Shown here one piece after another: positions 40,801-64,000 of a DNA stretch of 64,000 nt (the first letter of the stretch is position 1; every line of letters begins with the position of its first letter). The position numbers were made by a program, and so were the translations under genes. The notes below the pieces were generated by a model. The model was not told the origin of the DNA and made no database searches. It saw nothing but the letters and a program-made list of their open reading frames with translations. This stretch comes from Chrysoporthe austroafricana (Eukaryota > Ascomycota > Sordariomycetes > Diaporthales > Cryphonectriaceae): contig JYIP02000008.1 of NCBI GenBank assembly GCA_001051155.2, forward strand, positions 2,666,001-2,730,000. Direction: 5' to 3'.

Positions 40801-43800
40801 CCTGGCCCACATCGGTCTCTTCCGTAAGGAAATGTACCGACTAGATCAGATCTGCCAGAACTTGGGCTTCCCGTCGATGCTTCCAGTTATCGAGGCCGAC
40901 GAGGAACAAGACATTAGCACCTTTTCGCCTGCCGCGGTTCAACTGGCAAGCACCTGCATGCAGATCGCATTGGGCAAGCTGTGGGAATCATGGAACATTG
41001 TCCCGGTCGCCGTTGTCGGCCATAGTCTGGGCGAGTACGCTGCTCTCAACTACGCCGGGGTGCTCTCGGACGCGGATACCCTCTACCTCGTGGGGAAGAG
41101 AGCCGATCTCCTCCAGAAGAAGTGCACGCGCGAAACCCATGCTATGCTCGTCGTTAGGGGCTCCGTTGACGAAATTACGGCTGCCCTGGGAGGTGCTAAA
41201 GACATGATCGAGTTCGCCTGCATAAACTCGCCAGTCGAGACCGTCCTCGCCGGATCTAACAAGGCCATCTCGGAGGTGCGGACAATTCTCGCCGATGCCG
41301 ACAGAAAGACGACCCTCCTCAAGGTCCCCTTCGCATTCCACTCCTGTCAGCTGGACCCCATGCTTTCAGACCTGAAGGAAGTCGCCCGAAGTGTTACCTT
41401 CTTCAAGCCCAAGTTGCCTGTGCTGTGTCCCCTAGATGGCACAGTTGTGGATGACGATGGCGTTTTTGGCCCCAAGTATCTGGCCCGCCACTCTCGCCAA
41501 CCTGTCAACATGATCCAGGCCCTCTTGGCAGGACGCAGCAGCAAGCTCATCAGTGATACCACCATGACGCTGGAAATTGGGCCCCACCCAGCCATGGGGG
41601 GTATGGTCCGGGCCGTCCTGGGTTCACACGTACCATCTCTTGCTTCATCGCAGCGTGGTAGGCCGGCTTGGTCAGTCCTCAGCACAACCATGAAACAGCT
41701 GTACACAGCAGGTGCCGCCATTCGTTGGACAGCATACCATGCCGACTTCAAGGCCTCACACAACGTCCTGTCGTTGCCAACCTATAGCTGGGACTTGAAG
41801 GACTACTGGATCACTTACGTCAACGACTGGTCCCTGCGCAAGGGCGACCCTCCGCTGGTGATCAATGGTGGTGGTGGTAGCCCGAGAATTGAGACCACAA
41901 CAATCCATAGGGTCGTCGAAGAGACCGAGCACGCCGGTGGAGTTCACATGGTTGTCGAGGCCGATATCACCCGCTCGGACCTAAGCCCGCTTGTACAGGG
42001 ACACGAGGTTGATGGGATTCCGCTGTGTACACCGTCAGTCTACGCAGATATTGCGCTGAGTCTTGGTACCTACTTTCTTCAACGATATCGTCCAGACCAT
42101 GTAAAGAATATCGTGGACGTGACAGACATGACGATTATCAAAGCACTGATTCTACGGCCTGGTGCAACACAACAGCTCATGCAAGCCCATTCCGAGGTTG
42201 AATGGTCATCTGATTCAGGTATTATCAAATTTATGTCCTTCGATGTAGGTCTCCCTTTCTCCCTCCCTCCCTCCTCTAGGCGGCAAACTCACTAACCGGG
42301 TAACAGAACAAGCGGAAGTTGCAGGAACACGCCCGATGCAAGGTCGTCTTCAAAGATGGGTCTCTTCAGCAAATACTTCAGAAGGGTGTCCCTGACCTGA
42401 AGCAAAAGCTCCAAAATCTCCGAGACGGCGTCCTATCGGGGGCTGTGAACCGCTACACCGGCGCCATGTGTTATCGCGCCATCCGGCCGCTCGCACGGTT
42501 CCACCCTGACTACCAAGCCGCCGGCGAGGTCCTTCTTAACAGCGATACTCTTGAGGCTGGCAGTCATCTCAGCTTTGCCAAGGTGAAGAAGGGCGGCAGC
42601 TTCCACACTCACCCGGGCGTGATCGATGCCCTCTCGCAGTGCTGTGGCTTCACCATGAACTGCAATGATTACGCCGAACTGGATGGGGATGTGTTCATGA
42701 ACCATGGCTGGGGCTCGCTCCAACTGTTCGAGCCCATTGACCTCCAAGATGAGTACACAACTTACACGCGCATGAAAGAAGGCCATGATAATTTGTGGCA
42801 CGGTGATGTTGTAGTCTTAAACAGCAAGGACAAAGTCGTTGCCTATTTTGGGCAGATTGTGGTTCGTCTCAGCATTTCTTTCTTTTTTCTCTTCTCTTGT
42901 CTGTTTTTCTTTTTTCTCTTTTCGCTTTACTTTTTCTCTCTTCCAGCAGAATCGAACGCTATGAGCATAACTGACCCTCCCCCCCGCCAGATCCAATGTG
43001 TATCCCGACGGGTCTTGAAGGTTATTCTATCAATTGAAAGTGGCATCAAGTCTGAGAAGCAACTGTCGGCACAACAGCCGCCTATTACTCCAGCTCCTAT
43101 TCCTCCTACCCAAGCCAAGAGTGTACCTAAACGCACTCCTGCGCCAGCGGTTCCTGTTCCTGCTCGAGTCACCGCTGGCAAATCTCAGTCTGCCGTTGTC
43201 GAGAAGGCCCTAGCAATTGTCGCCGAAGAGAGTGGCATCGCCGTGGCCGACCTAACCGACAGCACTGTTTTCGCCGACATCGGTGTTGATTCTCTGCTAG
43301 GCCTGACCATTGCAGCCCGTTTCAAGGAGGAATTAGAGCTGGAGATCGACTTCAACGCTCTACTCTTCGAGCATCCCACAGTGGGTGAGCTCAAATCGTT
43401 CTTCGGAGGAGAAAGCAGCGCTTCTAATTCTTCTCCTTCCGGATCGGTGACCCCAACCTCCTCTGCTGCCCGGGAGTCTGCCGCTTCGAGTGACGAGTGT
43501 TCTTCAAGTCCTCCATCGACGAACGGTGATGAGGATAGCTTGCAGAAAAGGGTGCCCATAGGAAAATTCGACTTCACACGTGCTCTCCAGATCATCTCAG
43601 AGGAGAGCGGAGTTGCGGCTGAGGATTTCACAAGCGATACCGTCTTTTCCGACTCTGGTGTTGACTCTCTGCTCTCCCTGGTTATTGTCAGTCGGTTCAG
43701 AGATGAGTTGGAGCTTGAAATCAAGCACGAGTCTCTATTTCTCGAGTGTCCCACCGTGGGCGAGCTGAAGACGGCCCTGCTAGGGGCGGATGACCCCGCT

Positions 43801-45135
43801 GCCAAAAAAGACGCCGTTGAGAGGAACGAGCAGCCAAAGGAAAGCGACGTGCTGCCGCCACCACCGAAGCATCAGCAGCGTACGCAGGCCGAGATAGCGG
43901 CCTTAGCAGCTCGGGAAAAGGCTGTTGATGAACTTGTCGCCAAGTACACTGCCGGATACTCGGGTCCAGCCTCACCTCCTCCATCCACACCAGCACCAAA
44001 GGATAACGAAAAGGTTGTTCTGATCACGGGCGCTTCAGGAAGCTTGGGGTCGCACTTGGTCTACCACATCGCACAGCTGCCTGACGTGAAGACGGTCGTT
44101 TGCATCAACCGACAGAACCGGGAGGAGCCCTACAAGCGTCAGATGAAGGCCATGAGGGATAAGGGGATACACTTCCCCGAGGCCCTTAAGGATAAGCTGC
44201 TCGTTTTGCAGACCGACACCTCGAAGCCAATGCTAGGTCTCGGGTCTGATGTTTATAATAGACTTGTGGGCACTGCTACCCATCTCATCCACAGTGCTTG
44301 GCCTATGAGTGGTAAGCGGGCCTTAGATGGTTTCGAACCACAGTTCCAAGTGATGAAGAATCTCATCAACCTCACATGCGATATCGCTTCCCTACGTCCC
44401 CCATCTTTCAAGTTCAGCTTCCAGATGGTCTCCTCTATTGGTGTTGTCGGCCTCTACGGCAAACACGACGGCAACCCGACGAAGAAAGTATTTGTACCCG
44501 AAGAGCGGTTCGGAGTCGACTGCATTCTCAACAACGGCTATGGAGACGCCAAATGGGGTTGCGAACGCATGCTAGACGAGACCCTGCACAAGAGCCCCGA
44601 CAGATTCCGCGCCATGGTTGTCCGTCTGGGCCAGATCGCAGGTTCGAAGACGAGCGGCTATTGGAACCCCATGGAGCACTTCGGCTTCGTTATGAAGTCA
44701 TCGCAGACCTTGAACGCCTTACCCGATGTGGCCGGCGAGGTCTACTGGACCCCGGTCAACGACATGGCCGATACTCTTGCGGACCTCGCGCTCTCAGACC
44801 ACACCCCCTACCGCTTCTACCATATCGAGAATCCCGTCGGGCAGCCCTGGAAGGAGATGAATGCCGTTCTGGCAGACGCACTCGGCATCGAGAACTTGAT
44901 CCCCTTCGACGAGTGGGTTAGGCGCGTAGCAGCCGCTCCTCAGCGAGACAACCCGGCCGCTACCCTGTTAGAGTTCCTAAACGATGATTATATCCGCATG
45001 TCTTATGGCGGGCTTGTCCTGGACCCGAGAAATACCTTGGAACATTCTAAATCGCTCAGAGCCGTGGGCCCAGTCAGTGAGGAGGTGGTCCGGAAGTATG
45101 TTCACAGTTGGAAGGAGATTGGTTTCTTGAAATGA
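37861..45135 (+). CDS. Non-reducing polyketide synthase (SAT-KS-AT-PT-ACP-ACP-R)
   Basis: Five exons: 37861-38150, 38220-38505, 38582-42244, 42307-42861 and 42991-45135, giving 2312 aa. The SAT carries GLCLGGL (Cys about 115). The KS starts near 379 with VDTACSSAL (Cys about 550) and KANIGHGEASSG. The AT has FTGQGAQFPGMG and GHSLGE. The PT has GHEVDGIPLC (His about 1333) and HPGVIDAL (Asp about 1520). Two ACPs carry GVDSLL (Ser about 1699 and 1824). The C-terminus is a thioester-reductase domain (TGASGSLGSH, YGDAK), not a thioesterase, so release should give an aldehyde. No C-methyltransferase domain is present. The SAT and the divergent HR-PKS neighbour suggest a reduced, non-acetyl starter. 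The intron at 42862-42990 has no stop in frame, so naive prediction would retain it; splicing restores the usual PT ending (QIVIQCVSRRVL). Confidence 0.94.
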
Positions 45136-46428: not shown

Positions 46429-47804
46429 CTACCGCAAACGCACGCTCATAACGCTTTCGTAGTTCGAGGGGTTATACGTATACACATGTTCGAGCTCAAG
46501 CCCGACATCATCAAAGACCTCGCGCCACTGAACCTCAGTTCGCTCCATGCTAGCGAAGGCCGAGAGCATGGTCATGTCGATGGAGGCGGCGATAAAGCTG
46601 ACACCTACCTCAGGGAGCACCATCTCGTCGACGAGCAGCACCGAGTCAGGCCCCATGGCCGCTTTGATATTCTCGAGAATCCTGCGCACCTTGGGTGGTG
46701 GGTGGTTATGCAACACCGCGCGCAGGTAGTAGAACTTAGCGCCTGTGGATATGTTAGCGAGGCGCAGGGGAACCAGGGTACTATGCCACGCACCGACTAC
46801 GGGCTGTGGCTCAAAGAAGTCGTGTGCCATGTTCTCGACGCCGGGCGTCGGCAGTGCCCGGGCTATCGAGTGCGGCAGATCTTGCAGGATGATGCGCCCC
46901 GGCAGCGCGGGGTATTTCTCTCTAAACTGCGCGCACTGATGGCCAACGCCGCCACCAATGTTGACATATAGAGGCTTATCGGCGGGCCAGCCGGCGGCCT
47001 CGGCGACCACAGGGTATACCGACAACCAGGTGACATCGGGCTGCCGCCGTAGCGCCATATAGGCGTTGAAGTGCGCCAGGCCCGCCGGATGCTCTGCAAA
47101 CCAAGTGAACGGGCCCGCGGTCGTGTGAAAGGCCATTTGGAAGGCAGTGTGCGCGCTGTCAATTGGATCTCTGTATCCAGTCTGCTCCAGATAGGCTGGG
47201 AGGGCCTGGTACGGCGGTGCGCCGACGTCGAAGCTGTGGCTGCGTGAGCGGGATGGACACAATGGGGCATCGGCAGGGGCCGTACTAGTGAGACAGGCCA
47301 GCCTCAGCAACTTTCTCGGTGAGATTGCGCGTGATGTGGCTGGCAGCGTATTGGCCTTGGCCGGTTTCATCCACCGCTCCAATGGCAGCAAGGTATCTCA
47401 AAAGACGGGCTGGACACAATGTGAGGCCCCGGTCTTTAATTCAAGGAGCTTAGACCTTACCCATCAGCTGCGGCTCTGCGCCTGTCTTCATCGAGGCCTG
47501 GTCGACCGTCACTGGCACCTCGGATTCCGCAAGGCATCTGAAAAGGCCCAATTTGATGCCGACTTGGACCATGGCAGCTTGAAGATGCTGGATGGCAGTC
47601 AGTATTCGCATGTTTCCGGGGCCTGGAGGTGGTACAAACCATGTGTCCATATCGATGAATCGTATCATGGGTACTCTCTAGAGAGAAGGCTAATCTTTGC
47701 AGAGCCACGATCGCCATTCGACGTCCAACTTCACCCTTGGCTGCCAGCTGTTTGACATGATCTAGAGCTGCGTCCATTTTGACTGCTGCTTGAGTAGGTC
47801 TCAT
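46429..47804 (-). CDS. Class II O-methyltransferase C
   Basis: Five exons (47804-47640, 47587-47461, 47409-47286, 47239-46794, 46742-46429) give 391 aa. Splicing links LQRLAFSLES and YGHM to HLQAAMVQVGIKLGLF, then RLLRYLAAIGAVDETG, then FDVGAPPYQALPAYL. The SAM motif is LYVNIGGGVGHQ. The last intron (51 bp, GTGCGT..CACAG, CTAAC branch) is open in frame; its removal restores PVVGAKFYYLRAVLHNHPP with the catalytic His. The ATG at 47804 is used; 47777 is an alternative 9 codons in. The gene is divergent from P450 2, with which it shares a 766-bp promoter. It acts as a SAM-dependent O-methyltransferase on an unknown hydroxyl of the pathway. Confidence 0.85.
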
Positions 47805-48570
47805 CAAGCCCTCGAATTATCAAAATCTTCGAGAGAGCGCAGAGTGCTGTGAAAGTCCTGCGAGATTCCTCACCAGAAGCCTGGAGCCAGCTCCCTTTAT
47901 CTCTGTAACTAGGTGTACCCCTAATTTTTGAACATCTCGGGTTCCGTTGGTGCATTATTACAGAGGCAGGTAGCCTTGTGCTACATCTCAAGGACTTCAT
48001 CGCTAAAGATAGACAATTTTCCCCAAACCCCCTGCTCCCAGGAACTAACCGTCGACGGGTTGGGTTAGGCAATCTCTTTACACAACACCATAGAACAGGA
48101 CCCGCTTAAGTGCATAGGGACGTAACCCCAACTCTGCACAGTACGCGAGTGTGAATCCTCTACTTGCTGGAGTGTGTGGCATTGGGGGCCAGAACGTGCC
48201 TTATGCGATGATGACACAGGTCCTGCGCCCGCCGTATTGCCGAGCAAGGTCGTATTGAGCAGTAACCACGGGCGGCCGCGCTGTTGTTGCATTGTGATGC
48301 CTCAAGTACAGCTGTCTAACGTGCAGTCTATCACTCCACGGACGCCCCTTCACTGTCCACACCCACACCCTGTTCCGACCTGGTCTCACGTTCGTACCTC
48401 ATCAGGGCATTACTATGTTGGCGGGCAATGTAATCTCGGGCCGACTACCTACACCCCATCGCCCGAGTCGGTGTCGATTAATAGACTATTAAGAGACAGC
48501 TTACACAGAGACAGTGGACCGGAAGCATCATCTAGTCAGAACCCACACTTGCTTAACTCTTGACACCACC
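47805..48570. promoter_or_regulatory. Bidirectional promoter of O-methyltransferase C and P450 2
   Basis: 766 bp without genes. It holds copy 2 of the motif shared with the PKS promoter (48436-48454), 135 bp before the P450 2 ATG. Confidence 0.55.
48436..48454 (+). promoter_or_regulatory. Shared cluster motif, copy 2 (TCGGGCCGAYTACCTASAC)
   Basis: TCGGGCCGACTACCTACAC differs from the PKS-promoter copy at only two of 19 positions and has the same orientation relative to the downstream plus-strand gene. Confidence 0.45.
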
Positions 48571-50219
48571 ATGTCCAATCTCATGCCTTGGGCACAATTG
48601 CTGCCTTACGTGGCCCTTGTGGGCGTCGGCTTGTTCTTGTTCCACCGGCTCGCCGTGATGCAGCGGCCCCATGCCGAACTGTGGGCTAACCTAGACACAG
48701 TCGGCGCCTCGCCCGGCAGCCGCCTCTTCTGCGTCAGTCCTGTTGCGTCATCCATCACATCGACACGACAGCTGGCGAACGAGGGCTACCGCAAGTTCAG
48801 CAAGGCGCTGAACCTGCCATTCGCCCTTCCGACGACGTGGATGCGCAGCGGCGCCGTCGTGGTGCTGCCGCCGTCGCTGCTCCCACTGCTCACGCGCCCC
48901 GACAAGGTGCGTGACAGCGAGTGGACTAACCTGAACGGCATGGTCGAGACCATCCAGCTGCCCTATCTTATCACCGACCACAACATCTACGAGAATGTGC
49001 TGCACTTCGACGTTGTGCGCCGCAAGATGGCCAGCAAGGATATGGACCGCCTCGCCGCCGCGACGGCCGATGAGATCGATCTCGCCTTCCGAGATATCTG
49101 GGGGACTGAGACGGAGTGGAAGGTCACGAACGGCTGGGTGGCATGCGGTCGCGTTATCGCTCGCACCTCGCAACGTATTCTCATCGGCCTGCCCCTGAGT
49201 CGCAACGAGGCGTTGCTGGAGACCTCGCGCCAGTACGCGAACTCACTGCTTGTCGGCGGTGCCGTGATGAACTGCTTCCCGCCAGCTCTGCGATGGTTCG
49301 CCGGTCCACTGATCGCACTGCGTGCCAAGTACTTCCAGGCGCGCTTTGTGAAGATGTTGGTGCCTGTCGTCCAGCAGCGCATTCGCCAGTGGGAGGCAAA
49401 CAATGATGGCGGCCCGGTGCGCATATCAACTCCCCCTTATCCTGCCGCCCTCTCACTAACTCGCTCGCGTTTTTCCCCTGTGCTCAGGACGACTTTCTCC
49501 AGTGGATGATCCCAGTCTGCGCCAAAGAAGGCCCCGACCAGCTAGACGCCACCCGCATAGCTCTACGCCTAGTCAGTATGCTCACCCCACTTATCTTCGC
49601 CATCTGCTACGTCTTCTCGCACTGCGTCCTCGATATTCACGGCAGCGCCGACCGCGCAGACATCCTCGAGGGCTTGCAGGAGGAGTGCGCGCGCGTGTCC
49701 GCCCAGCATGCCGGCCTCGCCACCCGTGGGTCTGTCGGCGCCCTGTTCCGCACTGACTCGGCGCTTCGCGAGTCCATGCGCGTATCGGACGTAGCAGTGA
49801 CGAACTTGTTCCGCGATGTCACGGCCGGGGAGGTGGAGATCGGGAATGGGCTTCGCGTGGGGCCCGGCGTGCGGATGGTGTTCCCCACGCAGGACGTGCA
49901 TTTGGATCCGGAGAATTACAAGGACCCAAGGCGGTTTGATGCATTCCGCTTCTCGAGGCCGTTCGAGAAGGGAGAGGCCAATGAGAATAGCGAGCGGGAG
50001 CTCATCACGACGACGACACTGTCCTTCTTGCCTTTTGGGTATGGACGGCACGCGTGTCCCGGGAGGTGGTTCGCTGCGCAGACCATGAAGCAGGCCCTGG
50101 CGTATATCGTGCTAAACTACGAAGTTGAGCTTGTAGGGAAACAAATTAGGAGGAAGGCATTGCTTAACACAATGGTACCGCCTGTGGATGCACAGATTAG
50201 GATCCGGCGGAAAGTGTGA
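48571..50219 (+). CDS. Cytochrome P450 monooxygenase 2 (ent-kaurene-oxidase-like) with unusual I-helix
   Basis: Two exons, 48571-49416 and 49488-50219, give 525 aa with an N-terminal anchor (residues 8-24). The K-helix ExxR is ESMR, and the heme loop FGYGRHACPGRWFA puts the axial Cys at about 472. The general shape matches the fungal ent-kaurene-oxidase/CYP68-like group. In the I-helix, where relatives read like FAAIHTTS, this protein has LTPLIFAICYVFSHC (about 314-328), so the conserved Thr that helps activate oxygen is missing. The protein is otherwise full length and its frame is clean. It may use substrate-assisted chemistry, perform a non-hydroxylating reaction, or be losing function. 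Its promoter is shared with O-methyltransferase C. Confidence 0.87.
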
Positions 50220-50476: not shown

Positions 50477-53407
50477 CTACACCCCTCTCTCCTCCAGTGC
50501 GTTCCTCAAAGTTTCTGCAAAGCCAGCCACATGCTCGGGCCCAATCATTGTGTAATGTGCACCCTGTACGGCATGGAACCTAGGTGGCTCACGCACAAAC
50601 TCGGCCCACCGGCTGAGATGCTCACGTAGCCATTCCTCGCGCGACCTAGCCGCCGCCTTGAGCGGTATAGCATGAAACACATCGATACCGTCCACCAAGC
50701 CAGTGGGATCATACTCAGTAGCCATGCGCTGCAGCCCAAACGCTACGTCCGCCCAACGCGCCAGCGCATCCGCCTTTAGCCCCAGCTCCTCTAGGCGCGG
50801 CTTATCCGCAACGCCCAGGACCTTCTTGATCGCCTCGCCGCGGGGCAGCGACCAGAACGCTGGGTCTGCCTCCACACGATCTGAAAAATCTTCGGTTATG
50901 AGCCCCAGGAAGTGGGACAAGTGCAGTAGGCATACATTCCAGCCCAGCTGGCGCATGCGGCTCTTGATATGCGGCGGCAGGTTGAACGAGCCGAGGAAAC
51001 GCACTTCGTCACCCAGGTCGTTTAGCCGCTTGGCCGTTTCGAACGCCAGCATTGCGCCATAGCTATAGCCCGCGAGTGCGTACGGCCCGCGCGGCTGGCG
51101 CGCGCGGATTGCCTTCACGTACACGTTAACGGCCTGCTCTATGCTGCCAAAGCGCTGCTGGCTGGGCTCGAAGCCCGGCGCGCGCAAAGCGAACACAGGC
51201 CGGTCGTCCGCGGCCAGGTGTTGGGCCAGTCCGACGAAGACGAGGACCTCACCGACGCCAGGGTGGATGAGCCAGAGTGGGGCCTTGGAACCCGTGGCAC
51301 GAAACGCGACGACAGGGTCATAGAGATCAGGCTGCCGGGCGTCGAGGGCAGCAGCCAGGGAGCGAGCGGTAGGGTTCTTCATAATGTGAATAATAGAGAT
51401 AGAAGTACCCATCCGTTTCTCCATGTGGTATTTTAGCTTCATGACGTGCATCGAAGTGAACCCGAGATCAAACAGGCACGTCTCGATATTAATGTCGAGG
51501 GCATTTAGAGTTGTGTCGAGTGTCTTAGCAAAGTCCGCAATCAGGCGCATCTCGGCCTCGTTCGCAGGCCGAGGTGCATTTATATGGAGTTGCTCCGCGA
51601 TGCGGCGTAGCGCCTGGTCGTGCAGCTCCAGGTCCATGTCAAATTCCCCATCCTCGAATAGGCGCGTCATCTTGGGTCGGGATATCTTCCCTAAGGTAGA
51701 CGTCGGGAGCAGCGACAGCGATGGCTCGCGAAGAGCGAAGACAACAGGACGAGTCGCTGTGCTGATCAGACATTCTTGCGCCGCCAGACGAGCGATGTCT
51801 TCCATATCTTTGGTCGGAATTGGAAACACTTTAGGGACATAGGCGATTGTCACCCGCTCGGTGTGGGCAGCCCTAGAAGGGAAGACGATGAAACGCGCCA
51901 CACGCTTACCCAGGGTCTGCTCAAGAGCCGTCTGAATATCCGCCGTCATGATCTTGACACCATTGATATTGATGACATCTTTGGCACGTCCCACAAGACG
52001 GAGATTCCCGTTTGAATCAATGACTCCTTGATCACCAGTACGGAACCACCCATCAGGAGTAAAGGCTTCATGCGTGGCAGTCGGGTTGCGGTAATAACCC
52101 TCAAAGACAACCAGGCCGCGGACTTCGAGGTTGCCGGGCTCGCCAGACTTGGCCAGACCTGGGCCGCTTGGGGCCGCAATTCGCATCTCCATGCCCTTTA
52201 TACACTTTCCAAGGGACGCTACAGTATAGCCATTGACGATATCGTAATCAGGGCAATTAGCATTATACACAGAGCCTGCACACGTCTCTGTCATGCCAAA
52301 GCCAGTGGTGATAACATTGCGAGGAGCACCATATTTTTCGAACAGGGCCGAGGCTGCCACGCAAATTTTCACATCATTTGCCTCGCCACCGGAAGTCAAA
52401 CAGACTAGACTACGCAGGTCCCATCCCGTCACGACCTGCGCAGTCTCAACGGCTGAGACCAGCTTTGCGAGGAAGAAGTTCGGCGCGAACGTGCGAGACA
52501 CCCGATGGCGACTCAGCAAATCCAAGAAGGTCTTAGGCGACGGCACGATGTCGACAGCGCTGACATGGACCTGGTCGGTGCCGAGCCATAACGCCTGGAG
52601 GTGGATTTCGGTCAGGCCTGCAACGTGGTCCAGACCGATCCAATTCAGGAACGGCCGGTTCTGGGGAAGCGGGCGTAGTCCAGCCTTGCCAGCAACAGCA
52701 GCTAGGATTTGTTTGTGGGTTAACTGGACAGCTTTGGCGTTTCCAGTACTACCCGACGTCAACATAAGCATCGCCAGATCTTCGTTGTTGTTCCTGCTGG
52801 TATTGTCCTTGCCGTTGTGCGAGATGTACTCCGCAAAACTTCCGTTGCGAATGTTGGCATGTATATCGATGCTGAGATTTTGTGCTGAGCTGAGTTTGTT
52901 GCTGCTACACTTCCACCTGACACTATCCTCAAGACCTGTTACTAGTTCACAGTAACGATCCAAACCAGGCTTCGACTCGAGTAGCGATTCAATTGAGTGC
53001 AGGTGCATGCCATGGATATCGCCGAATAAATGTATGAACTTGGATCTAGTAATGCAAATTGGCGACTCCAAAAGAGCTGCCAAGCTCTGGATGTGCTTGC
53101 AACGATCATCCTCGACATTGCTGAAGGGCGAGGAGAGGACCGGGATCCCGCCTGCGAAGAGAACGGACCAAAACCACAATATATTGTCCCAATGGTCGTC
53201 AAGATGAAGCAGAACTGGACGGTTAGCCTCAAATGACTTGAGAGAACGAATTGTAGGGCCTATACACGTGGCGCGCTCGTGCAGGCTACTATATGTGATC
53301 ACCGCAGGGTTGGATGTATTGCCAGTGGGATAAAGGAAGAGACGTCCCGGATGATGGGATGTTGCCCTCGCCCGGAGAACATCTTGAAGTGTTTCACACG
53401 TCGACAT
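50477..53407 (-). CDS. NRPS-like A-T-TE synthetase (aryl alpha-keto acid type)
   Basis: An intronless protein of 976 aa. Adenylation domain (1-580): core motif LMLTSGSTGNAKAVQL, then FLNWIGLDHVAGLTEIHLQALWLG, TTGFGMTE, and GWFRTGDQG with LVGRAKDVININGVK. Thiolation domain: LGFTSMHVMKLK, Ser about 652. Thioesterase domain: GYSYGA (Ser about 782) and GAHYTMI (His about 951). There is no condensation domain. This A-T-TE layout and the NWIGLDHV block match enzymes such as TdiA, AtrA and MicA, which activate arylpyruvates and dimerise them to quinones or furanones. The PLP aminotransferase at 56586 could supply such an alpha-keto acid. Within a PKS cluster the enzyme might instead esterify or condense an aryl acid with the polyketide. 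The substrate cannot be read from the sequence alone. Confidence 0.9.
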   Translation of the reverse strand: MSTCETLQDVLRARATSHHPGRLFLYPTGNTSNPAVITYSSLHERATCIGPTIRSLKSFEANRPVLLHLDDHWDNILWFWSVLFAGGIPVLSSPFSNVEDDRCKHIQSLAALLESPICITRSKFIHLFGDIHGMHLHSIESLLESKPGLDRYCELVTGLEDSVRWKCSSNKLSSAQNLSIDIHANIRNGSFAEYISHNGKDNTSRNNNEDLAMLMLTSGSTGNAKAVQLTHKQILAAVAGKAGLRPLPQNRPFLNWIGLDHVAGLTEIHLQALWLGTDQVHVSAVDIVPSPKTFLDLLSRHRVSRTFAPNFFLAKLVSAVETAQVVTGWDLRSLVCLTSGGEANDVKICVAASALFEKYGAPRNVITTGFGMTETCAGSVYNANCPDYDIVNGYTVASLGKCIKGMEMRIAAPSGPGLAKSGEPGNLEVRGLVVFEGYYRNPTATHEAFTPDGWFRTGDQGVIDSNGNLRLVGRAKDVININGVKIMTADIQTALEQTLGKRVARFIVFPSRAAHTERVTIAYVPKVFPIPTKDMEDIARLAAQECLISTATRPVVFALREPSLSLLPTSTLGKISRPKMTRLFEDGEFDMDLELHDQALRRIAEQLHINAPRPANEAEMRLIADFAKTLDTTLNALDINIETCLFDLGFTSMHVMKLKYHMEKRMGTSISIIHIMKNPTARSLAAALDARQPDLYDPVVAFRATGSKAPLWLIHPGVGEVLVFVGLAQHLAADDRPVFALRAPGFEPSQQRFGSIEQAVNVYVKAIRARQPRGPYALAGYSYGAMLAFETAKRLNDLGDEVRFLGSFNLPPHIKSRMRQLGWNVCLLHLSHFLGLITEDFSDRVEADPAFWSLPRGEAIKKVLGVADKPRLEELGLKADALARWADVAFGLQRMATEYDPTGLVDGIDVFHAIPLKAAARSREEWLREHLSRWAEFVREPPRFHAVQGAHYTMIGPEHVAGFAETLRNALEERGV

Positions 53408-54611
53408 AGAAATGTGCGGCTAAAGCTGCGCTTTGAGTAATAGGTTTGGTGATTTCAAGAAGAAACTGTAAGGTGCCATAACAGGTTCTGCTCTGAACAC
53501 CACCTTCTATACTTCGTTGACCGGTTGAGAACCAAACCCACTACGGCAAATCCATTACCCTAAGATACACCGCTCGCAACACTTGTTCATGATTCCGCCC
53601 CCATATTGAGTTTCAATTGCTCTAGATGATGTAGATCGTCCCCATGGTATTGATAGAAATCCTCCTCTAGTGGGCGGCCAGGGCGTGTGTTTCGGGAACA
53701 CAGTGCCGCCGTATCCAGGGCTTACCTAGAGCAGGGCTTGGTGCTACCCCCGTGATACAAATACATCCATGTGCTTTCAAACGTAGCTTGCTCAGCTGAG
53801 ACAACGCCACTCTTTCTTGGATCCGTGCCAATGAGAGACTCAAGATCGCTTTTGAGGCCCCCACTGTCAAAGCAACCTGTTGGTAGGTATGGACCTTTTG
53901 CACCGATATTGACTTTAAGGCAACTAATAGATGCATTGGCCTAGTCAGGAAGGTGGATGGTGATACACCTGCGAGGGCCATTCAAAATTATGCACCTTGG
54001 GTAGCATTGTGTTTGTAAGGCCTTGTCATTGACGCTCTTGACACGAGATTCCATTTCATAGGCTCTCGCTATATAATAATTACGGAACATTTGGCGGTTT
54101 CCTAAGCTGACTCATGTACGTCGTCGCATATAAGCTGCTTTCATACACATTTATACTGTATTATAATCCTACCCCCTGAGGTATTGATGACCGCTTACCC
54201 CTGTTTCTCACGCAAATATCCAGGGTCCCGGCTAGAGTGCAACGTTGTTTACCCAGTGAACCGCTTGATCCGTGTCCTCGTATCTCCCTGATCGGTCGTC
54301 AGGATTCATGTTGGAAGGGTGGAGACATCGATGTATATTTGCGCCAGTACGTGTCTGTGATAACTATGCCGTATGAAGGCATATTCTTATATCCGTACAA
54401 GCTTGCCCGTCATTCATCATGCCCTCTCCCCAATAAGAGCCATTAAGGCCACTCACATGAGAATTTAGACACCTGAGATCGCTGATAGACTTGTGTGGAG
54501 GCTGACTAGTCGTCACTGATCTTACTATGTTGATGTCTCCTGGGTCGTAGTCTGCTCCCACATCGTCAAGCTTTCTTCCTATCTTGCACGTCAATTCACT
54601 TCTGAGACACT
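53408..54611. promoter_or_regulatory. Divergent promoter region of A-T-TE gene and O-methyltransferase D
   Basis: 1.2 kb without a supported gene. Neither an AflR-type site nor the shared 19-bp motif was found here. Confidence 0.45.
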
Positions 54612-56124
54612 ATGGCCGCGAACGAGTCGCTCCCGCGGATTGTGCAGCTCGCAAACACGATAAATGCCGCTGTCACCAACATACAGAAGGTGCTGTCTGC
54701 CAAGGGCATGCCGTCACCCACTTTTGACGAAGATGCTTCCTTTTCCTTGCCTCTCGAAATCACTAAAGACCATGATGTCGTACTTGACGCCACGGCAGAA
54801 CTCCATGATTTGTTACTGGAGCCGCTGAACCTGATCCACAGGCATTGTGGGGTAAGTGCATCACTGTCCGAAGGCGAGACCACGAATGGCTGACCATGGG
54901 AACGTGAAAGCACAATAACTCGCTATGTATGCAGGCTATTGCGGACTTTAAAATTGCAGGCATGGTTCCGCCTCACGGTCGAGTGTCATTCGGCGAGATT
55001 GCCAAACAGACGCCAATGACAGAGCAGATGACGGCTCGCCTTCTTCGACATGCCATGACGATGCGTGTCTTTTGCGAGCCCGAGCCAGGGATGGTAGCCC
55101 ACACAACAGCATCCAAGACACTGAGCAACTCGGCAGCCAATGACTGGTTGCAAGCCGGCACAGAGGAAATGTGGCCAGCGGCCGTTAAGGTCAGTAAAAG
55201 CTGAGATCTAAAGTGTTTTTACTGCTCGGAAACTCATTGTTGCACTGGCTAGATGGTAGACGCTCTCAAGAAGTGGCCAGCGTCCCAGGAACCCAACGAA
55301 ACAGTATGATCATCCTCCCTGACAAGCCGTAGGGAGGTACTAAAACTCCTTTGGCAGGGTTACTCTTTAGCGAACAGTACCACGGAGACTATCTACACCA
55401 TCTTTGCTAAAGATTCTGAGCGGGCTGCACGATGGGCAAGAGGCATGCAGGTCTTCGCCCAGAGGCCCCAGTTCGACCCCTCATACGTCACAGACTACTA
55501 TGACTGGGAGTCTCTAGGCGGTGCTCAGGTCGTCGACGTTGCCGGTGCTCAGGGCCACGTCGCAATAGCCCTAGCCAGGCGCTTCAGCAACCTCAGTGTT
55601 GTGGTTCAGGACATCAGCAACGTTGTCGAGACTGCAACGGCCCCTGAAGAGCTGCGAGAGAGGGTGTGCTTCATGGCCCACGATATCTTCTCTCCGCAAC
55701 CAGTAGAAAAGGCAGACGTCTATTTTTTGCGCTGGGCCTTGCACAACTGGTCTGATAAGTACTGTAGTCTTATCCTCCGAGCGCTGATACCCGCCCTTAA
55801 GCCTGGGGCGAGGGTCATAATCCAGGAGAGCTTGATGCCAGAGCCAGGTGCGGTGGCAACGTGGAAGGAGAAGAACTTAAGGTCTGCTATTCCCAATGCA
55901 ACGCACAGAGGGGCCAGTTCTAACTCTTTGTGCTATGTAGAGCTACTGATATAAACATGGCGGCGGCCTTCAATGGGAAGGAGAGAACAGTGGCTGAGTT
56001 CAAATCTCTGTTTGAGAGAGTCAATCGGGGTTTTGTGCTTCGGAAAGTCATTGAGCCAGCAGGATCGGCCCTTGGAATGCTGGAATTCGTATGGCAGAAA
56101 CCATCTGAGCAAGACGCGAGATGA
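54612..56124 (+). CDS. Class II O-methyltransferase D
   Basis: Five exons (54612-54851, 54935-55189, 55253-55303, 55358-55881, 55941-56124) give 417 aa with all joins in frame. Exon 2 has the winged-helix block FGEIAKQTPMTEQMTARLLRHAMTM. Exon 4 has the Rossmann domain with VVDVAGAQGHVAIALA, VVVQDISN and VYFLRWALHNWSDKY (catalytic His). The last intron leads to NMAAAFNGKERT, the counterpart of the usual LxxFNxKER block. The SAM glycine-rich loop is AGAQG rather than GGGxG, a mild departure. The gene lies head-to-head with the A-T-TE gene and 461 bp before the aminotransferase, so it may serve that branch. Confidence 0.85.
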
Positions 56125-56585
56125 ATTGGAATTTTGCCGATGGCTTGGGTGCTTCCTTGCCCAAGTGCACCGGGCGCCAAAGTGCAACATTCCGCGTACG
56201 CACTTAGAATTTTACCAAGAGTTCGAGTACCGCTATGTACACTTCGTAAGCTGCAATATTTAATTAGGCACCGCGTTCAACTGCAACACTACGCACTGTA
56301 TTATATTCACTTAAGCTACATAACGCAAATCTACAGCAGGCGTAACGCAATGCAACGCAGCGCAATGCAACGTAAACGCAACTTGTGTCCCCCCCCTTTT
56401 TTTGCCCTTGTCCTTCTTGCACCCTAGTACTAATCTAGACTCGGATGGTCCATGCTAGCTCAGTAACGTCCATCTACTCCTTCGTGTCTCTCTCGTTACT
56501 GCCTACGGTGATCTCTTGAAGACAAGAATCGACCAATATCTTTGCGTGTTGCTCTTCTTCAAAAGACTCGTTCCAGTGTCTAAAA
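56125..56585. promoter_or_regulatory. Aminotransferase promoter region with 12-bp direct repeat
   Basis: 460 bp. The 12-mer CGCAATGCAACG occurs twice, at 56346-56357 and 56361-56372, inside a longer run of CGCAA/ACGCA units, followed by a C/T-rich tract typical of fungal promoters. Confidence 0.5.
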
Positions 56586-58340
56586 ATGAGCAGCACAGTC
56601 CCAAAACACCAGCTTGAAGGCGCAGTTGCGAAATATGGTTTATCCGAAAGGGCTGCGCATAATTCCCTCCAGACCCTGCCCTGGGACATGCTGAAGGAAA
56701 TGTTGGCGAACGCCTGGAGCCCTGACAGTCCTGACGGCTTGTGAGATTGCCTGTAATCCCTTCTAGGCTTGAATCTATCCTCTACATGACCACTGACGAG
56801 CTGAAGAGTCTTCCTTGGTGTTGCGGAGAACCCTCTCCTGTATCAGGAGGTCGCCGACTATATCACGAGTAACGTACGAATGCGTAAGTGACATAAAATA
56901 TTCCATTTCTGACGGCAAGCCTAGATATCTGTCGACCCAAGCGTACATCTCAGTTACGGGGTAGGTCCACGAGGGTCACCGCGTCTGAAGAAGGCGCTGG
57001 CTGCGTTCTTCAATTCGGATTTCCAAGCCCACGAACCTGTGCTGGAAAAGGAGGTCCTCATTCTCTCTGGAGTTGTGGCTGTGATTGATGCTCTTGTATG
57101 GTCAATTTGCGACGAAGGTGAAGGAATCATTGTTCCTATGCCCTTCTACACAGGTTTTAAACCCGCAGTTGGAGAGAGGGCACGGGGTGTGCTCGTACCC
57201 GCCTCTTTCCAGTCTGTCGAGGGTTACCAAGGCCTCGATAGCATCTTCGACCCGGAGATGAATAAGAAAGCATTAGAGAATGCACTTTCCAAGGCTAATC
57301 AGGACGGTATCAAAGTTCGAGCTGTGATGCTGTGCAAGTAAGGGAGGTCCCGGTTCCGTGGCTTCTTACCTAGTAACTGGCAGATTCTGGCTGACACGGC
57401 GCCCCAGCCCGCATAACCCACTTGGAAAATGCTATGTGAGCCACCTGTTTGACACTATTTGAACAAGCTGACACAGCCATAGCCCGCGGAGACCCTCAAA
57501 GAGGTGGCCAGTCTCTGCGGTCGCCACAACCTACACTTGATTAGCGACGAGATCTTTGCGAAGTCGGTCTACAAGAACCCACGGGCTACCCATGCTATGC
57601 CCTTCACATCGATTCTAGCGTTGGACCTCAGCGAATGCATCGATCGTCACCTTGTACACGTCGCGTATGGGATGGGTAAGGACTTCTGCGCCAATGGGTT
57701 TCGAGTGGGAGCGCTGCATTCCAGGAATGAAGGTCTCTTGGTGGCAGTATCTAGCATCTGGTAAGACATACTTGTACGGGAATGAGCTTGGCTTATGCCA
57801 TATTTAGCGTCTTCTCCTGGGCACCATATTTTACCCAAGAGGTATGGGCCAATATTCTCGAAGATGATGAGTTTCTGTCGGCCTTTTCAAGGAAAAAGCA
57901 GGCGCTGCTTGAGGAGCATTGCGCGATCTTGACTACATTCCTAGAACAACATGAAATCCCGTACTTCCAAGACGTGTAAGTCTCACTTAGATGCCAAGTA
58001 TCGACAGTTGAATAGCTAAGCTGAGGTCGTACACAGCAATGCCGGGTTTTTCATATGGGTCGACCTCCAACGTTACCTCTACAATAATTCTCTACAGGAC
58101 GGATTACCAGATCTTTCAATAATCAGACTATCGCAATCCGATGCAGACATGTACCGAGACCGCGAGACTAAGCTCTTTAAGCGCTGTATAGAGGGTGGCG
58201 TCGGGATTTCCACTGGAACCAGCTTTACCACTGAAGAGCTGGGCTGGTTTCGAATTAGTTTTACTGTCGAGAAGGAGGCTTTGTACACAGGCCTTCGGAG
58301 GTTGTTGAAATGCTTGCAAGAAATTGAGGCCCGTGGTTGA
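56586..58340 (+). CDS. PLP-dependent aminotransferase, ACC-synthase-like (fold type I)
   Basis: Seven exons (56586-56740, 56807-56873, 56925-57337, 57408-57435, 57483-57760, 57808-57975, 58037-58340) give 470 aa; a 28-bp exon carries most of NPHNPLGKCY. Motifs in order: VFLGVAENPLLYQE, HLSYGVGPRGS, MPFYTGF, NPHNPLG (Asn contacting PLP), ISDEIFA (Asp), and AYGMGKDFCANGFRVG with the PLP-binding Lys. The family includes ACC synthases and the GliI-type C-S lyases of fungal clusters, but most fungal members act as aminotransferases or related PLP enzymes. Next to an A-T-TE synthetase the simplest role is converting an aromatic amino acid to its alpha-keto acid. A C-S or beta-elimination role cannot be excluded. 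All splice joins keep frame, so the gene is intact. Confidence 0.85.
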
Positions 58341-59661: not shown

Positions 59662-61876
59662 TCAGGTCGGCTTCTGTCCCCCCCCGGCCGACCCATTCGT
59701 ATCCACCCCCTTATTCTCTGCCTTCCTCAGATCATGCCATCCCATTCCCCACAGAAATATCCCACACGACGCTGCTAGCGCCGCCACAAGGTAGAAAACA
59801 TGATCGAGGCCGTCGGCATACCCGACCAGCACGCCAGGTAGGTCCGTAGGTGAGACGATGGCCCGAAAGCCCACGGCACCAGCGTCTATAATAGCCGTCG
59901 CGTTGGCATGCGGTGCGTGCCGGGCGATGCCCGACCGCAAGCCGGAGTCGAAGATGATGTTGTACAAGGTCAGCATGACGGTCGGGCCAAGGGCCTGGCT
60001 GAACATCACGAAAGAGATGCCGGACGAGAGCTCCTCGCCGGCCATGGCGGCCTGGACGGCCATGATGGCCTATTGCGTGCTCGATCAGCAGGTGTGGATG
60101 GGATAGAGGGGGCCTAGAGCAAAGGTGAGGCTGAACAAACCAGTTGTAGACCGGCGCCGGAGCCGATGCCAGCGATGATCTGGAAGCCGACCCACTCGCC
60201 TGTTGAGCTGCCAGGTTGGAGGATTGAATATAGTCCGCTGCCGATAGAAAGGAAAAGGGTAGAAAAGAGAGCAACGGGAATCACGTAGCCAATCTTCGTA
60301 ACTAGAACTAAGATGTTAGTGACAGGGCAGATTTCGAATCCATAGGTGCTTGTCTGACGTACCCACGCCGCCTGCAGCGCCAGCCATGAAGAGCTGAGCC
60401 AGGATCATTGGCAGCAGATATACACCACTCAACATAGCACTAGCGTTGTTGACAGCCTGGAAGTATATCGGGAGAAAATAGACTGCTCCATAGACCGAAG
60501 ACATGAGGAGGGCCTCATAGACCCCCGAAGCCAAGACGTCCCTCCGGCGGATCATAGCGTGGGGCATCATGGCATCGTCGCCCCGACGACGATTCCAGAA
60601 AAACCAGACGACAATGGTCGCAGCAGCGCCGCAGAAGAGGCCGATGACCTGGGATGACTTCCATGGATAGTTGACGCCACCAAACTGGAGGGCGAGGAGG
60701 AGTTGCAGGACTGCCGGCGCAAAAAGTAAAAAGCCCATAAGATCAAGATGATGGTGAAGCCTCGGGAGCAGCGACCAAGGGTTGGGCTTCGCTGTCTGTT
60801 CGGGGATGTGCAGGAGAAGTATGCCGAGCGCTGCAAGACCGCCGGCCGGTACATTGACATAGAAGCCTAGTCTTGTCAGTAAACAAGTTCCAGATGGGCG
60901 GAGGCATGACAGCATACACCAACGCCATGTAGCATAAGACGTGAAGGCTCCTCCGATGAGAGGCCCAGCGACGAGTCCCAGAAGATTGACTGCGAACCAC
61001 AAATCAGCGCCAGCTGGTGCCATACTGGTAACCAGGCAGCGGTTACTTACATCCCATGGTCAACCCAATCAAAGCTGCCAACACGGGTCAGCAGAGACAT
61101 CATCAGATGCGGAGCACGTCCAGCTTACAGGGCCGCTTCTCGAGAGGCGCACAGCTCGAAACTATGGTGATGGAGCCGTTCCTGATGCCTGCAGCGCCGA
61201 AGCCTGCGACGAACCGACCGACGATGAACATGGGGGAGGAGACGGCAGCGCCGCAAAGCACGGAACCGACCTCAAATATCGTAAGGAACGATAGGAAGGT
61301 CCACTACCACAGTCAAGACCAAACCTCAGACCAACAGACAGGCAGCGCACAATTCATACGAACCTTAGTGTTGAAATACGTGTAGATTCTCCCAGTCAGC
61401 GGCTGAGGTGCCGCACTTGAAGCCATCCATACATGTTAGCTTGCCGGGCGTCTCAGAGTGCTGCCTGAGGACTGGGAACTTAATAGGACGTACCTCCCAA
61501 ACTGGTAGGCACTTGCGTACCAACCGACGTCGGCGAGAGAGTGAAAGGTGTCTGTAATGCGGGGGATGGCCTGTAGGACGACAAAGTGAGCCTCCTGCCT
61601 GCCTCACCACTCCCAGTCTCAGGAGGCGCGGCCTACCGTGCTGACAATCATAGTGTCGAGCAGCATGAGGAAGCTAGTGAGCGCGACCGCAGCCACGATA
61701 ACGGCGAGCCTGACGCCCGTCACGTAATCGCTGCCGGGCGTGGGCTTTTCGGCGGACAGCCCCGGCGGCTCCGGCCGGGGGGCGTCGGCGTCTGCGTTTG
61801 CATCGGCATCTGGCCGGTCTGCCGGTAGGGCGGCATCTTCTGCAGGCGCGGCTCCGGAGGACGGGCCTATAGCCAT
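59662..61876 (-). CDS. Second MFS efflux pump (14-TM drug:H+ antiporter-like)
   Basis: Nine exons (61876-61637, 61570-61494, 61415-61364, 61303-61129, 61074-61051, 60989-60918, 60866-60363, 60307-60141, 60069-59662) give 572 aa. Marks include LDTMIVSTAIPRITDTF in TM1, SAYQFGRSAAPQPLTGRIYTYFNTKW across two joins, GRFVAGFGAAGIRNGS, and [23 protein letters not shown] (motif C region). The N-terminal 45 residues are rich in Ala, Asp and Pro. The family exports small toxic molecules from the cytosol. Its highly split structure contrasts with the intronless first pump (21859-23643), so the two are not recent duplicates. It may lie at the right border of the cluster. Confidence 0.87.
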
Positions 61877-63488
61877 GATGGACGGTGGACGACGCTACTT
61901 GCTAGCTAGCGGCGGCGACCGCTTGATGGTAGGATGTTGCTGCTGAGCACCCGATAGTAGTGGCCCACGAGGCGATCAAGACCGGGGGCTCTAAGCTCGT
62001 GCAAGAAACAGTGGGCAAGAACATGGAGGGAGTCTAGTAGACTGACCTCGGCGAAGACTAGTTGATGTTAAGTGGGCGATCCTTGCCTTGGCTGCCTGTC
62101 TGCATGGAACTTTTTTCCTTGTGTCTGGCAACTAAACGACCTTCGCACATCATCTGAAGAGCTCTAAACCCCCTTGAGCCGTTAATCCCCTGCCATGCGG
62201 GTACTGATGTTATAGACAGGGCTCGCTGTGTAGAACGTCGGCACGGCGGCAACGGTCTGGCTGGCTATTGGCTGATTGCTGCTGGCTGTTGGCTGCTGGC
62301 CTGCATATTAAGGCGGTCCGAATCAGCTGTCCGTGGCGATAATACGAGCCCTCTGTACGATATAAATGAGGAGTGAGATGGACATGCACATCGCCCTGTT
62401 GGGATTGTAGGAAGCAAGGGGAATGCAGCCTCTGTAAGGTCCCTCGGCGGTAGCATCTCGAAGGTCGTATCGCCCTCAGACGGGGGTCGCATTGACGATA
62501 TGTAAGACAATACGGACAGGACTTGAATGTAACTCTGTTTTCGAACAAGGGGCATGGCCGTAGGGACAGTGGGGATAGTAGCTCGGGTGGGGACTCTGCC
62601 TAGGCGTGTCCACAGCGGCAGGACCCGTCTGGGCATACTGTATCTACTTACTAGAGCGTGCAAGGCTAAGCGGTTGGGGTCAGCACCACCAGTGCGACTG
62701 CACCCCATTGCATACACGGGGTTTCCGTTTATTGGCCTTGATTTTCCGGTTAAACGCATGTCGACGCCCACCGTAGCCCCCATTCCCACGGCGTTGGGTG
62801 TGTCCCGGTCGATGCCAGCACGACAGCCGGCCCCCCGCCAACCAGGGAGGCGGAAACGATCGCCTGGCCCCCAAGACGGATATCACGGATGCATTTCCGA
62901 CAGACAGGTCACCCACATCATCTCCCTGCATGCCTACCAGCCTGCCAGCCTACTTGCGGCTCGGGATACGCTGCGGTGCATCTACCGTTGGTTCGCATCA
63001 CACACCACCTCCCACACCAGATACGTGGGTACGGGGGTGCCCCTCCTCCTGGACCAACATGCAGACAAGGCTGTGGGGCTCAGCCTCAATGGACGACAAC
63101 CTCATCAACCCCGGCAGTAGGTATCCTTCGCCCCCAGATGATGCGTCACCTCCCCAACGAGATGCAAAAGGACCATGCAAGATGAGGACCGTTGGGAACC
63201 TGAACTGCGTTTGAGGTTCGCCAACAGACAATCTGACATCCAAAACAGCTGGACCTGGATCGTGCTCGTCCTGGCCTCACTCTTCCGCTTCCAAGCTCCC
63301 GCCCCCCTCGGCCCCTCCTGCTCGTCCTTCTTCACCCCGCCTCGAAGAGATTCAACACCTATTGCCTTCCCCTCCTAGCCTCCGGTACCTTACCGCCTAG
63401 CCGCCCGCCCGCACCGAGGCACACCCTGCGCGCGGCCAAACCTCTTCTCTAGTTTCTTGCTATCACTGGCCTAGATCGTTACGCTATC
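61877..63488. other. 1.6-kb intergenic region
   Basis: Divergent promoters of the second MFS gene and the third P450. A GCTG-rich imperfect repeat lies near 62250-62305. Open frames are present because of GC content, but none has a recognisable domain. Confidence 0.45.
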
Positions 63489-64000
63489 ATGGAGGCCTCT
63501 TCCGGCTCCAGCCTCCGTGAACTGCTGTCCTGGCGAGGCCTTGCTGCAGTGGTCGCCGTCTACTATGCCACCCTCGTGTTCTACCGCCTCTTCCTCCACC
63601 CTCTTGCTCGCTTTCCCGGTCCCAAACTGGCCGCCGTCACACGCTGGTATGAGGGCTACTATGACGTCGTCCAGAATGGACAGTACACCTTCAAGATCGC
63701 CGAGATGCATCAGAGATACGGCAAGCTCTGAAACTGCTCCCTTTCCCACCCTCCACCCAACGCTGACTCTGGCCCTGCTCCTGCCTAGGTCCGATCGTCC
63801 GCATCAGCCCTTACGAGCTGCACGTCATAGATCCCGCCTTTTTCGAGAAACTCTACCGCCAGGAGGGCCGCTGGGACAAGTATGCCTGGGTCTACGCCGG
63901 GTTCTCCACCTATGGCTCCACCATCGGCACAGCGCCTCACGATGTCCACAAGGCGCGCCGCCTGCCGCTGAGTCCCTTCTTCTCCAGGGCCAAGGTGGCC
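63489..64000 (+). CDS. Cytochrome P450 monooxygenase 3, N-terminal part (trichodiene-oxygenase-like), runs off the window
   Basis: Exon 1 (63489-63720) encodes a membrane anchor (residues 15-32) and the hinge [25 protein letters not shown], hallmarks of the CYP58-like/trichodiene oxygenase group. It ends in HQRYG. Exon 2 starts at 63789 with [12 protein letters not shown], the normal continuation. The intron between them uses a GC donor (GCAAGC) with an AG acceptor. The remaining roughly 400 residues, including the heme Cys, lie beyond 64000. It could be the last cluster gene or an unrelated neighbour; the 1.6-kb gap before it makes membership uncertain. Confidence 0.75.

What the first reader, a model, noticed from the sequence alone, without database searches (positions are those of the whole stretch)
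50477..58340. Arylpyruvate-type A-T-TE synthetase and PLP aminotransferase embedded in a dual-PKS cluster
Seen: an intact A-T-TE enzyme, an O-methyltransferase and an intact ACC-synthase-like aminotransferase sit together, flanked by cluster pumps and the PKS genes. Known: A-T-TE plus aminotransferase is the core of terphenylquinone/furanone pathways. Inferred: either a polyketide-arylpyruvate hybrid product or two superimposed pathways under one AflR-like regulator. I do not recognise a published pathway with this gene set, and consider this the strongest candidate for something undescribed.
Basis: partly seen in the sequence, partly recalled or inferred. Interest (0 to 1): 0.75.

Follow-up and report, generated by a model that had tools for sequence, protein, structure and literature searches.

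The report
Terphenyl-type gene module beside two PKSs
A fungal gene set that probably joins two aromatic keto acids into a pigment-like molecule sits next to, but appears separate from, a polyketide gene cluster; it belongs to a known kind of cluster, and its helper enzyme carries an unusual fixed change in its active site.

Summary
The genes are real and open: A-T-TE (one 976-aa frame), O-methyltransferase (5 exons), ACC-synthase-like PLP enzyme (7 exons). The hybrid reading is not supported. In this genome the A-T-TE has two paralogues, each inside a similar module (O-methyltransferase, P450, MFS pump, NmrA-like gene, rhodopsin-domain gene) without PKS within the 30 kb read around each. For each module gene searched genome-wide, the best paralogue lies at one of these two loci. 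The right half is therefore a self-contained module, from window 46432 to about 5 kb past the window's end, abutting an HR/NR-PKS cluster. In other fungi, A-T-TE and PLP-enzyme relatives share 16 contigs (120 rows listed each), with neighbouring locus tags in the three cases that can be checked; five species list them on different contigs. PLP-enzyme and NR-PKS relatives share none. Content resembles the published ric-like terphenyl-type clusters. Less expected: all 16 pair-linked PLP enzymes have Phe where ACC synthase has active-site Tyr233, one change on the tree, marking a 35-row clade (34 Phe, one gap). Best reading: this enzyme supplies the arylpyruvate that the A-T-TE dimerises. Substrate and product are undetermined.

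The parts
50480..53407 (-). A-T-TE synthetase (976 aa, single exon); stop at 50477-50479; A-domain V262, carrier S652, TE S782/H951
54612..56123 (+). O-methyltransferase OMT2, five exons 54612-54851, 54935-55189, 55253-55303, 55358-55881, 55941-56123; best paralogue (summed pieces) beside the C21:1.05 Mb A-T-TE
56586..58340 (+). ACC-synthase-like PLP enzyme, seven exons, 470 aa; K287, D243, N215, R295, R442 kept; P89 at ACS Tyr85 and F246 at ACS Tyr233
46432..47816 (-). O-methyltransferase OMT1 of the module (several exons, not spliced in detail)
48493..50216 (+). P450a of the module; best two paralogues lie beside the other two A-T-TEs
59665..61894 (-). MFS pump of the module
63453..64000 (+). 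start of P450b, which runs past the window's right end (L023 to about 2718); NmrA-like gene (L023:3106-4201) and rhodopsin-domain gene (L023:5075-6499) follow outside the window
37861..45135 (+). neighbour, not part of the module: NR-PKS SAT-KS-AT-PT-ACP-ACP-R, fusarubin-type relatives
29514..36999 (-). neighbour, not part of the module: HR-PKS KS-AT-DH-ER-KR-ACP (start approximate)
17298..18965 (+). neighbour: AflR-type Zn2Cys6 regulator of the PKS side; only Zn2Cys6 match listed in the window

Best explanation
Two independent clusters lie side by side, with the border between the NR-PKS stop (45135) and OMT1 (46432). The right-hand one is a terphenyl-type module. The ACC-synthase-like PLP enzyme deaminates L-Phe or L-Tyr to the arylpyruvate (inferred). 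The A-T-TE adenylates it, loads it on the carrier serine, and its thioesterase domain condenses two units to a terphenylquinone or related core (inferred from family). The NmrA-like protein, two O-methyltransferases and two P450s reduce, methylate and oxidise it, and the MFS pump exports it (inferred). Shown: gene content, open frames, the three-copy module in the genome, linkage of the pair on 16 contigs elsewhere, lack of conserved linkage to PKSs in the rows seen, and the Tyr-to-Phe change.
For: Three module copies in one genome. Window plus right flank: OMT1, P450a, A-T-TE, OMT2, PLP enzyme, MFS, P450b, NmrA, rhodopsin-domain. C21:1.04-1.06 Mb: the same without the PLP enzyme (an aldo/keto reductase stands between OMT2 and MFS instead). 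C19:4.70-4.715 Mb: A-T-TE, OMT1, P450a, MFS, NmrA, rhodopsin-domain. Best genome-wide paralogues lie at these loci: A-T-TE first two; P450a 54/49%, next 33%; MFS C21 64%, then C20 52%, then C19 58%; OMT1 C19 55% and C21 57-67%, next 39%; NmrA 50/42%, next 26%; rhodopsin-domain 42/36%, next 27%; P450b C21 63%, then C22 59%; OMT2 by summed pieces, C21 404 bits against 217 for the top single match. Of the window's PKS frames only the NR-PKS reductase domain matches the two loci, at the A-T-R-like gene beside the C19 A-T-TE, and none of 52 listed PKS matches lies near them (38 of 94 candidates scored). Pair: 16 contigs shared between 120 A-T-TE and 120 PLP-enzyme rows, against 0 and 2 for the NR-PKS comparisons; neighbouring tags IAQ61_004987/8, O1611_g3605/6, VSDG_09605/6. 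Tree: the window A-T-TE is in a 40-row clade (SH-aLRT 100) with 13 of 17 pair-linked rows; both own paralogues fall outside. A Xylaria multiplex gene model joins the PLP enzyme to an OMT1-type methyltransferase (55% and 56% identity). Val at code position 1 marks alpha-keto-acid A domains (PMC10316625 passage; V262, 117 of 123 rows). Some ACS-like proteins are Asp/Phe/Tyr aminotransferases (PMC10813531 passage).
Against: No expression or metabolite data. Contig sharing is read from contig lengths, and 5 of the 16 shared contigs exceed 1 Mb. 26 of the 39 database rows in the A-T-TE clade show no linkage. Five species list a Phe-bearing PLP enzyme and an A-T-TE on different contigs (Apiospora marii, Hypoxylon NC1633, Daldinia bambusicola, D. 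caldariorum, Paraphoma chrysanthemicola), so the pair is not always linked, or assemblies are broken there. Two contigs are shared by A-T-TE and NR-PKS rows (Hirsutella rhossiliensis 8.3 Mb, Madurella fahalii 9.3 Mb): chromosome-sized, so adjacency is neither shown nor excluded. Position 5 of the A-domain code is Thr, outside the Ile/Val or Asn rule, so the substrate is not predicted. The PLP enzyme lacks Tyr233, which could mean altered chemistry. No Zn2Cys6 regulator was listed in the module (150 of 219 candidates scored), which leaves room for control by the neighbouring AflR.
Confidence: 0.75

Rival explanations
1. Hybrid pathway: the A-T-TE product or its arylpyruvate unit is joined to the HR/NR-PKS product, and all genes form one cluster.
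For: Adjacency: 1.3 kb between the NR-PKS stop and OMT1; the A-T-TE, OMT2 and PLP enzyme are open and the NR-PKS is collinear with a full-length homologue.
Against: Each half has its own pump, methyltransferases and P450s. Module copies occur twice without PKS beside them in the same genome. No listed contig shared by PLP-enzyme and NR-PKS relatives; four species hold them on different contigs.
Confidence: 0.06
2. Two separate products from one co-regulated supercluster controlled by the AflR-type regulator of the PKS side.
For: The only listed Zn2Cys6 match between C21:2.67 and 2.75 Mb is that AflR, and no regulator was seen in the module. Fungal superclusters of several pathways are in print (PMC9600275, start of abstract in the listing only).
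Against: AflR-type sites are at chance: 9 against 10.2 expected and 19 against 18.3, though this protein's site is unknown. Both paralogous modules also lack a listed nearby Zn2Cys6 match, so the module does not seem to need an adjacent one.
Confidence: 0.2
3. The PLP enzyme does not supply arylpyruvate but does other chemistry (lyase, or amine insertion into the product) in the A-T-TE pathway.
Against: The PLP lysine and the arginines matching ACS Arg281 and Arg407 are kept, and the nearest non-ACS folds are aspartate and aromatic aminotransferases. Aminotransferases are established partners of A-T-TEs (TdiD, UcdG; PMC12105029 passages).
Confidence: 0.22

Closest known systems
ric-like terphenyl-type clusters of Hypoxylaceae (RicA-RicF and relatives; PMC8403587)
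   Same: A-T-TE with several O-methyltransferases, an NADP-dependent oxidoreductase and P450s, up to two similar clusters per species; an aminotransferase in only two of them
terrequinone (tdi) clusters
   Same: A-T-TE plus aminotransferase plus reductase
   Different: no prenyltransferase match at any of the three A-T-TE loci here; PLP enzyme is ACS-like
allantofuranone (alf) and uscandidusin (ucd) clusters (PMC12105029)
   Same: A-T-TE core with O-methylation; ucd has an aminotransferase, UcdG
   Different: alf has DAHP synthase and ring-cleavage dioxygenase, ucd prenylates; neither seen in the frames scanned here, and UcdG was not compared by sequence
ACC synthase (ACS)
   Different: Tyr85 is Pro and Tyr233 is Phe
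fusarubin-type NR-PKS (fsr1)
   Same: neighbouring NR-PKS: 58-77% identity to the 120 listed relatives, several named fusarubin-cluster PKS
   Different: paired here with a divergently transcribed HR-PKS; the neighbour is not part of the module

Membership tests
aryl-alpha-keto-acid A-T-TE synthetase | A, T and TE domains, no C domain | tested here: met
aryl-alpha-keto-acid A-T-TE synthetase | Val at code position 1 (PMC10316625) | tested here: met
   V262, V in 117 of 123 rows; the position was assigned by motif anchor, because the profile alignment to GrsA did not reach it
aryl-alpha-keto-acid A-T-TE synthetase | code position 5 Ile/Val (phenylpyruvate) or Asn (4-hydroxyphenylpyruvate) | tested here: inconclusive
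   Thr338; family A 72, V 25, T 15, I 10, N 1 of 123
aryl-alpha-keto-acid A-T-TE synthetase | carrier serine, TE serine and histidine | tested here: met
   S652 123/123, S782 122/123, H951 122/123 (the C19 paralogue was entered without its TE frame)
aryl-alpha-keto-acid A-T-TE synthetase | activation and dimerisation of an arylpyruvate | not testable with these tools
   needs enzyme assay or heterologous expression
ric-like terphenyl cluster | A-T-TE with O-methyltransferases, oxidoreductase and P450s | tested here: met
   taking the NmrA-like gene as the oxidoreductase
ric-like terphenyl cluster | A-T-TE in the RicA clade | not tested
   RicA sequence not held
terrequinone (tdi) cluster | prenyltransferase in the cluster | tested here: not met
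   PF11991 matches only on C12, C18 and C6 (5 of 5 candidates scored)
ACC synthase | Tyr85 | tested here: not met
   Pro89
ACC synthase | Tyr233 | tested here: not met
   Phe246
ACC synthase | PLP lysine, Asn202, Asp230, Arg281, Arg407 | tested here: met
   K287, N215, D243, R295, R442
TdiD-type aromatic aminotransferase | sequence kinship to TdiD | not tested
   TdiD sequence not held; nearest solved relatives are ACS
PKS-arylpyruvate hybrid cluster | conserved linkage of A-T-TE or PLP enzyme with the NR-PKS | tested here: not met
   0 contigs PLP enzyme/NR-PKS; 2 chromosome-sized contigs A-T-TE/NR-PKS. Limited to 120 listed rows each

The most novel reading that the evidence does not exclude
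The linked PLP enzymes form a dedicated subfamily that arose once from ACC-synthase-like ancestors by losing the tyrosine at the Tyr233 position. They have chemistry or substrate range of their own (for example making an unusual arylpyruvate, or putting nitrogen into the A-T-TE product), so that the module makes a terphenyl- or furanone-type compound class not yet described.
Probability: 0.22. Interest if true: 0.6.

Novelty: new member of a known kind. Interest (0 to 1): 0.36.

Why it matters
It corrects a likely wrong pairing: anyone mining this locus as a PKS-arylpyruvate hybrid would look for a compound that probably does not exist. It also shows that a gene module of six to eight genes around an A-T-TE exists as three divergent copies in one genome. 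It points to a clade of PLP enzymes, often linked to A-T-TEs in several classes of fungi (recalled taxonomy of the named genera), with a fixed active-site change that can be tested directly in vitro.

Tried and rejected
Hybrid cluster: rejected. True ACC synthase: rejected on Tyr85 and Tyr233. Terrequinone-type: rejected, no prenyltransferase. Shared AflR control by binding sites: uninformative. Substrate from code position 5: undecided. Profile alignment of the A-T-TE family to GrsA reached only the region after the position-5 motif, so code positions 1 and 2 rest on motif anchoring and position 5 on the MAFFT alignment; in that call the GrsA fragment was misplaced over A4, and its printed codes are not used except around position 5. 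The motif counts used wrong slices and are replaced. The label-clustering shuffles say nothing (500 of 500), as most rows were unlabelled. The Fisher tests (13 of 39 against 4 of 83 rows, p 6e-5, the 83 including the two own paralogues; 16 of 16 against 17 of 103, p 4e-11) ignore relatedness and are descriptive only. The Tyr/Phe column was not dropped from the tree on which it was counted. Only the 120 best rows of 1522, 706 and 6455 matches were seen. Genome-wide absence claims are for listed matches: one search scored 38 of 94 candidates, 150 of 219, 47 of 52. Pfam scans of the flanks used chosen frames only (10 each). No fungal genome collection was available for direct synteny. That an A-T-TE/ACS-like pairing with a PKS is not in print rests on the listings of the paper searches in an open-access library; most listed papers were not opened. 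The structure model is of relative P0121, not of the window protein.

Full report
What is there. The window lies on contig C21 (2666001-2730000) of a 48.15-Mb, 22-contig fungal genome. At the stated coordinates lie an A-T-TE synthetase (50480-53407 minus, 976 aa, one open frame; AMP-binding, PP-binding and Thioesterase by Pfam), an O-methyltransferase (OMT2, 54612-56123 plus, five exons, 417 aa) and a PLP enzyme (56586-58340 plus, seven exons, 470 aa). All are open after splicing at GT-AG sites; the models were made by eye. To the left lie an HR-PKS (29514 to about 36999 minus; introns fit the frame breaks that I read) and an NR-PKS with SAT, KS, AT, PT, two ACPs and a reductive release domain (37861-45135 plus; PT from the dehydratase-type match and its relatives), collinear over its whole length with a Cercophora scortea homologue. 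An AflR-type regulator, Methyltransf_2 genes, an MFS pump and a P450 complete the PKS side.

Where the module ends. Comparing all window frames of 45 aa or more with about 30 kb around each of the two other A-T-TE genes of the genome (C21:1.053 Mb, 57% over the whole length, and C19:4.70 Mb, 50%) shows that the A-T-TE belongs to a repeated module. OMT1 (46432-47816), P450a (48493-50216), the A-T-TE, the MFS pump (59665-61894), an NmrA-like gene and a rhodopsin-domain gene have counterparts at both other loci. OMT2 and P450b have theirs at the C21 locus. NmrA, the rhodopsin-domain gene and most of P450b lie just past the window's right end. Genome-wide searches place the best paralogue of each tested gene at one of the two loci, with a wide gap to the next match for P450a, OMT1, NmrA and the rhodopsin-domain gene. 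For MFS and P450b the C21 locus is first but another locus comes second. OMT2's counterpart at C21 was matched in six pieces of 50-59% identity (404 bits together); single matches elsewhere score up to 217 bits at 42%, and pieces elsewhere reach 45%. The PLP enzyme has no counterpart at either locus; at the C21 locus an aldo/keto reductase lies between OMT2 and the MFS gene. In those 30-kb stretches the only match to the window's PKS frames is the reductase domain of an A-T-R-like gene, and none of the 52 listed PKS matches in the genome lies near them (38 of 94 candidates scored). No Zn2Cys6 match is listed near them either (150 of 219 candidates scored).

Other genomes. No fungal contig collection was available, so I used the longest-contig length that the protein search prints as a contig fingerprint. 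Of 120 listed A-T-TE relatives and 120 listed PLP-enzyme relatives, 16 contigs occur in both, with matching species names; 11 are under 1 Mb. Where both rows bear serial locus tags the two genes are neighbours: IAQ61_004987/004988, O1611_g3605/g3606, VSDG_09605/09606. Against this, Apiospora marii, Hypoxylon NC1633, Daldinia bambusicola, D. caldariorum and Paraphoma chrysanthemicola list a Phe-bearing PLP enzyme and an A-T-TE on different contigs. NR-PKS relatives (120 listed) share no contig with the PLP enzyme and two chromosome-sized ones with the A-T-TE, which also serves as a control for chance sharing. Xylaria telfairii, Nemania FL0916, Astrocystis sublimbata and Camillea tinctor carry the pair on one contig and an NR-PKS relative (73, 64, 63, 61%) on another. 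A Xylaria multiplex gene model joins the PLP enzyme to an OMT1-type methyltransferase. In the A-T-TE tree the window protein sits in a 40-row clade (SH-aLRT 100) that holds 13 of the 17 linked rows; the two own paralogues and 4 linked rows are outside. One of those 4 (P0063) shares its contig with a linked row inside the clade (P0008).

The A-T-TE. Val262 fits code position 1, said to mark alpha-keto-acid activation (PMC10316625, passage). Position 5 is Thr338, while Ile/Val goes with phenylpyruvate and Asn with 4-hydroxyphenylpyruvate (PMC10316625, section 11), so the substrate stays open. Carrier and thioesterase residues are in place.

What it is. Gene content matches the ric-like clusters described for Hypoxylaceae: A-T-TE, several O-methyltransferases, an oxidoreductase, up to four P450s, an aminotransferase in only two of them, frequent duplication (PMC8403587, section 23 read). 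It is not terrequinone-type, because no prenyltransferase match lies at any of the three loci. I conclude that the locus holds two abutting clusters, that the right one is a further member of the ric-like kind, and that the Phe-bearing PLP-enzyme clade is the part that deserves bench work. Whether the AflR-type gene also controls the module is open.

Noticed in passing
window 29514-45135: A fusarubin-type NR-PKS (SAT-KS-AT-PT-ACP-ACP-R, no C-methyltransferase match) is divergently paired with an HR-PKS; fusarubin-type enzymes are recalled as working without an HR partner, so the pairing itself may be worth a look.
   Followed up: partly
L020:147-2438 (C19:4.6956-4.6979 Mb): A gene with AMP-binding_C_3 and a NAD_binding_4 reductase domain (A-T-R-like) lies next to the C19 A-T-TE.
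   Followed up: no
L017:861-2024: An aldo/keto reductase takes the place of the PLP enzyme in the C21:1.05 Mb module copy.
   Followed up: no
L023:5075-6499, L019:2450-3722, L021:4026-5270: A fungal rhodopsin-domain membrane protein is a constant part of all three A-T-TE modules; its role is unknown.
   Followed up: partly
window 13292-14269: Questin-oxidase-like gene left of the AflR-type regulator, possibly part of the PKS cluster.
   Followed up: no
window 4952-9579: CorA-like domain near long minus-strand frames (600 and 445 aa) without any Pfam match.
   Followed up: no
L024:8202-9272: HET-domain (heterokaryon incompatibility) gene about 17 kb right of the window's end.
   Followed up: no
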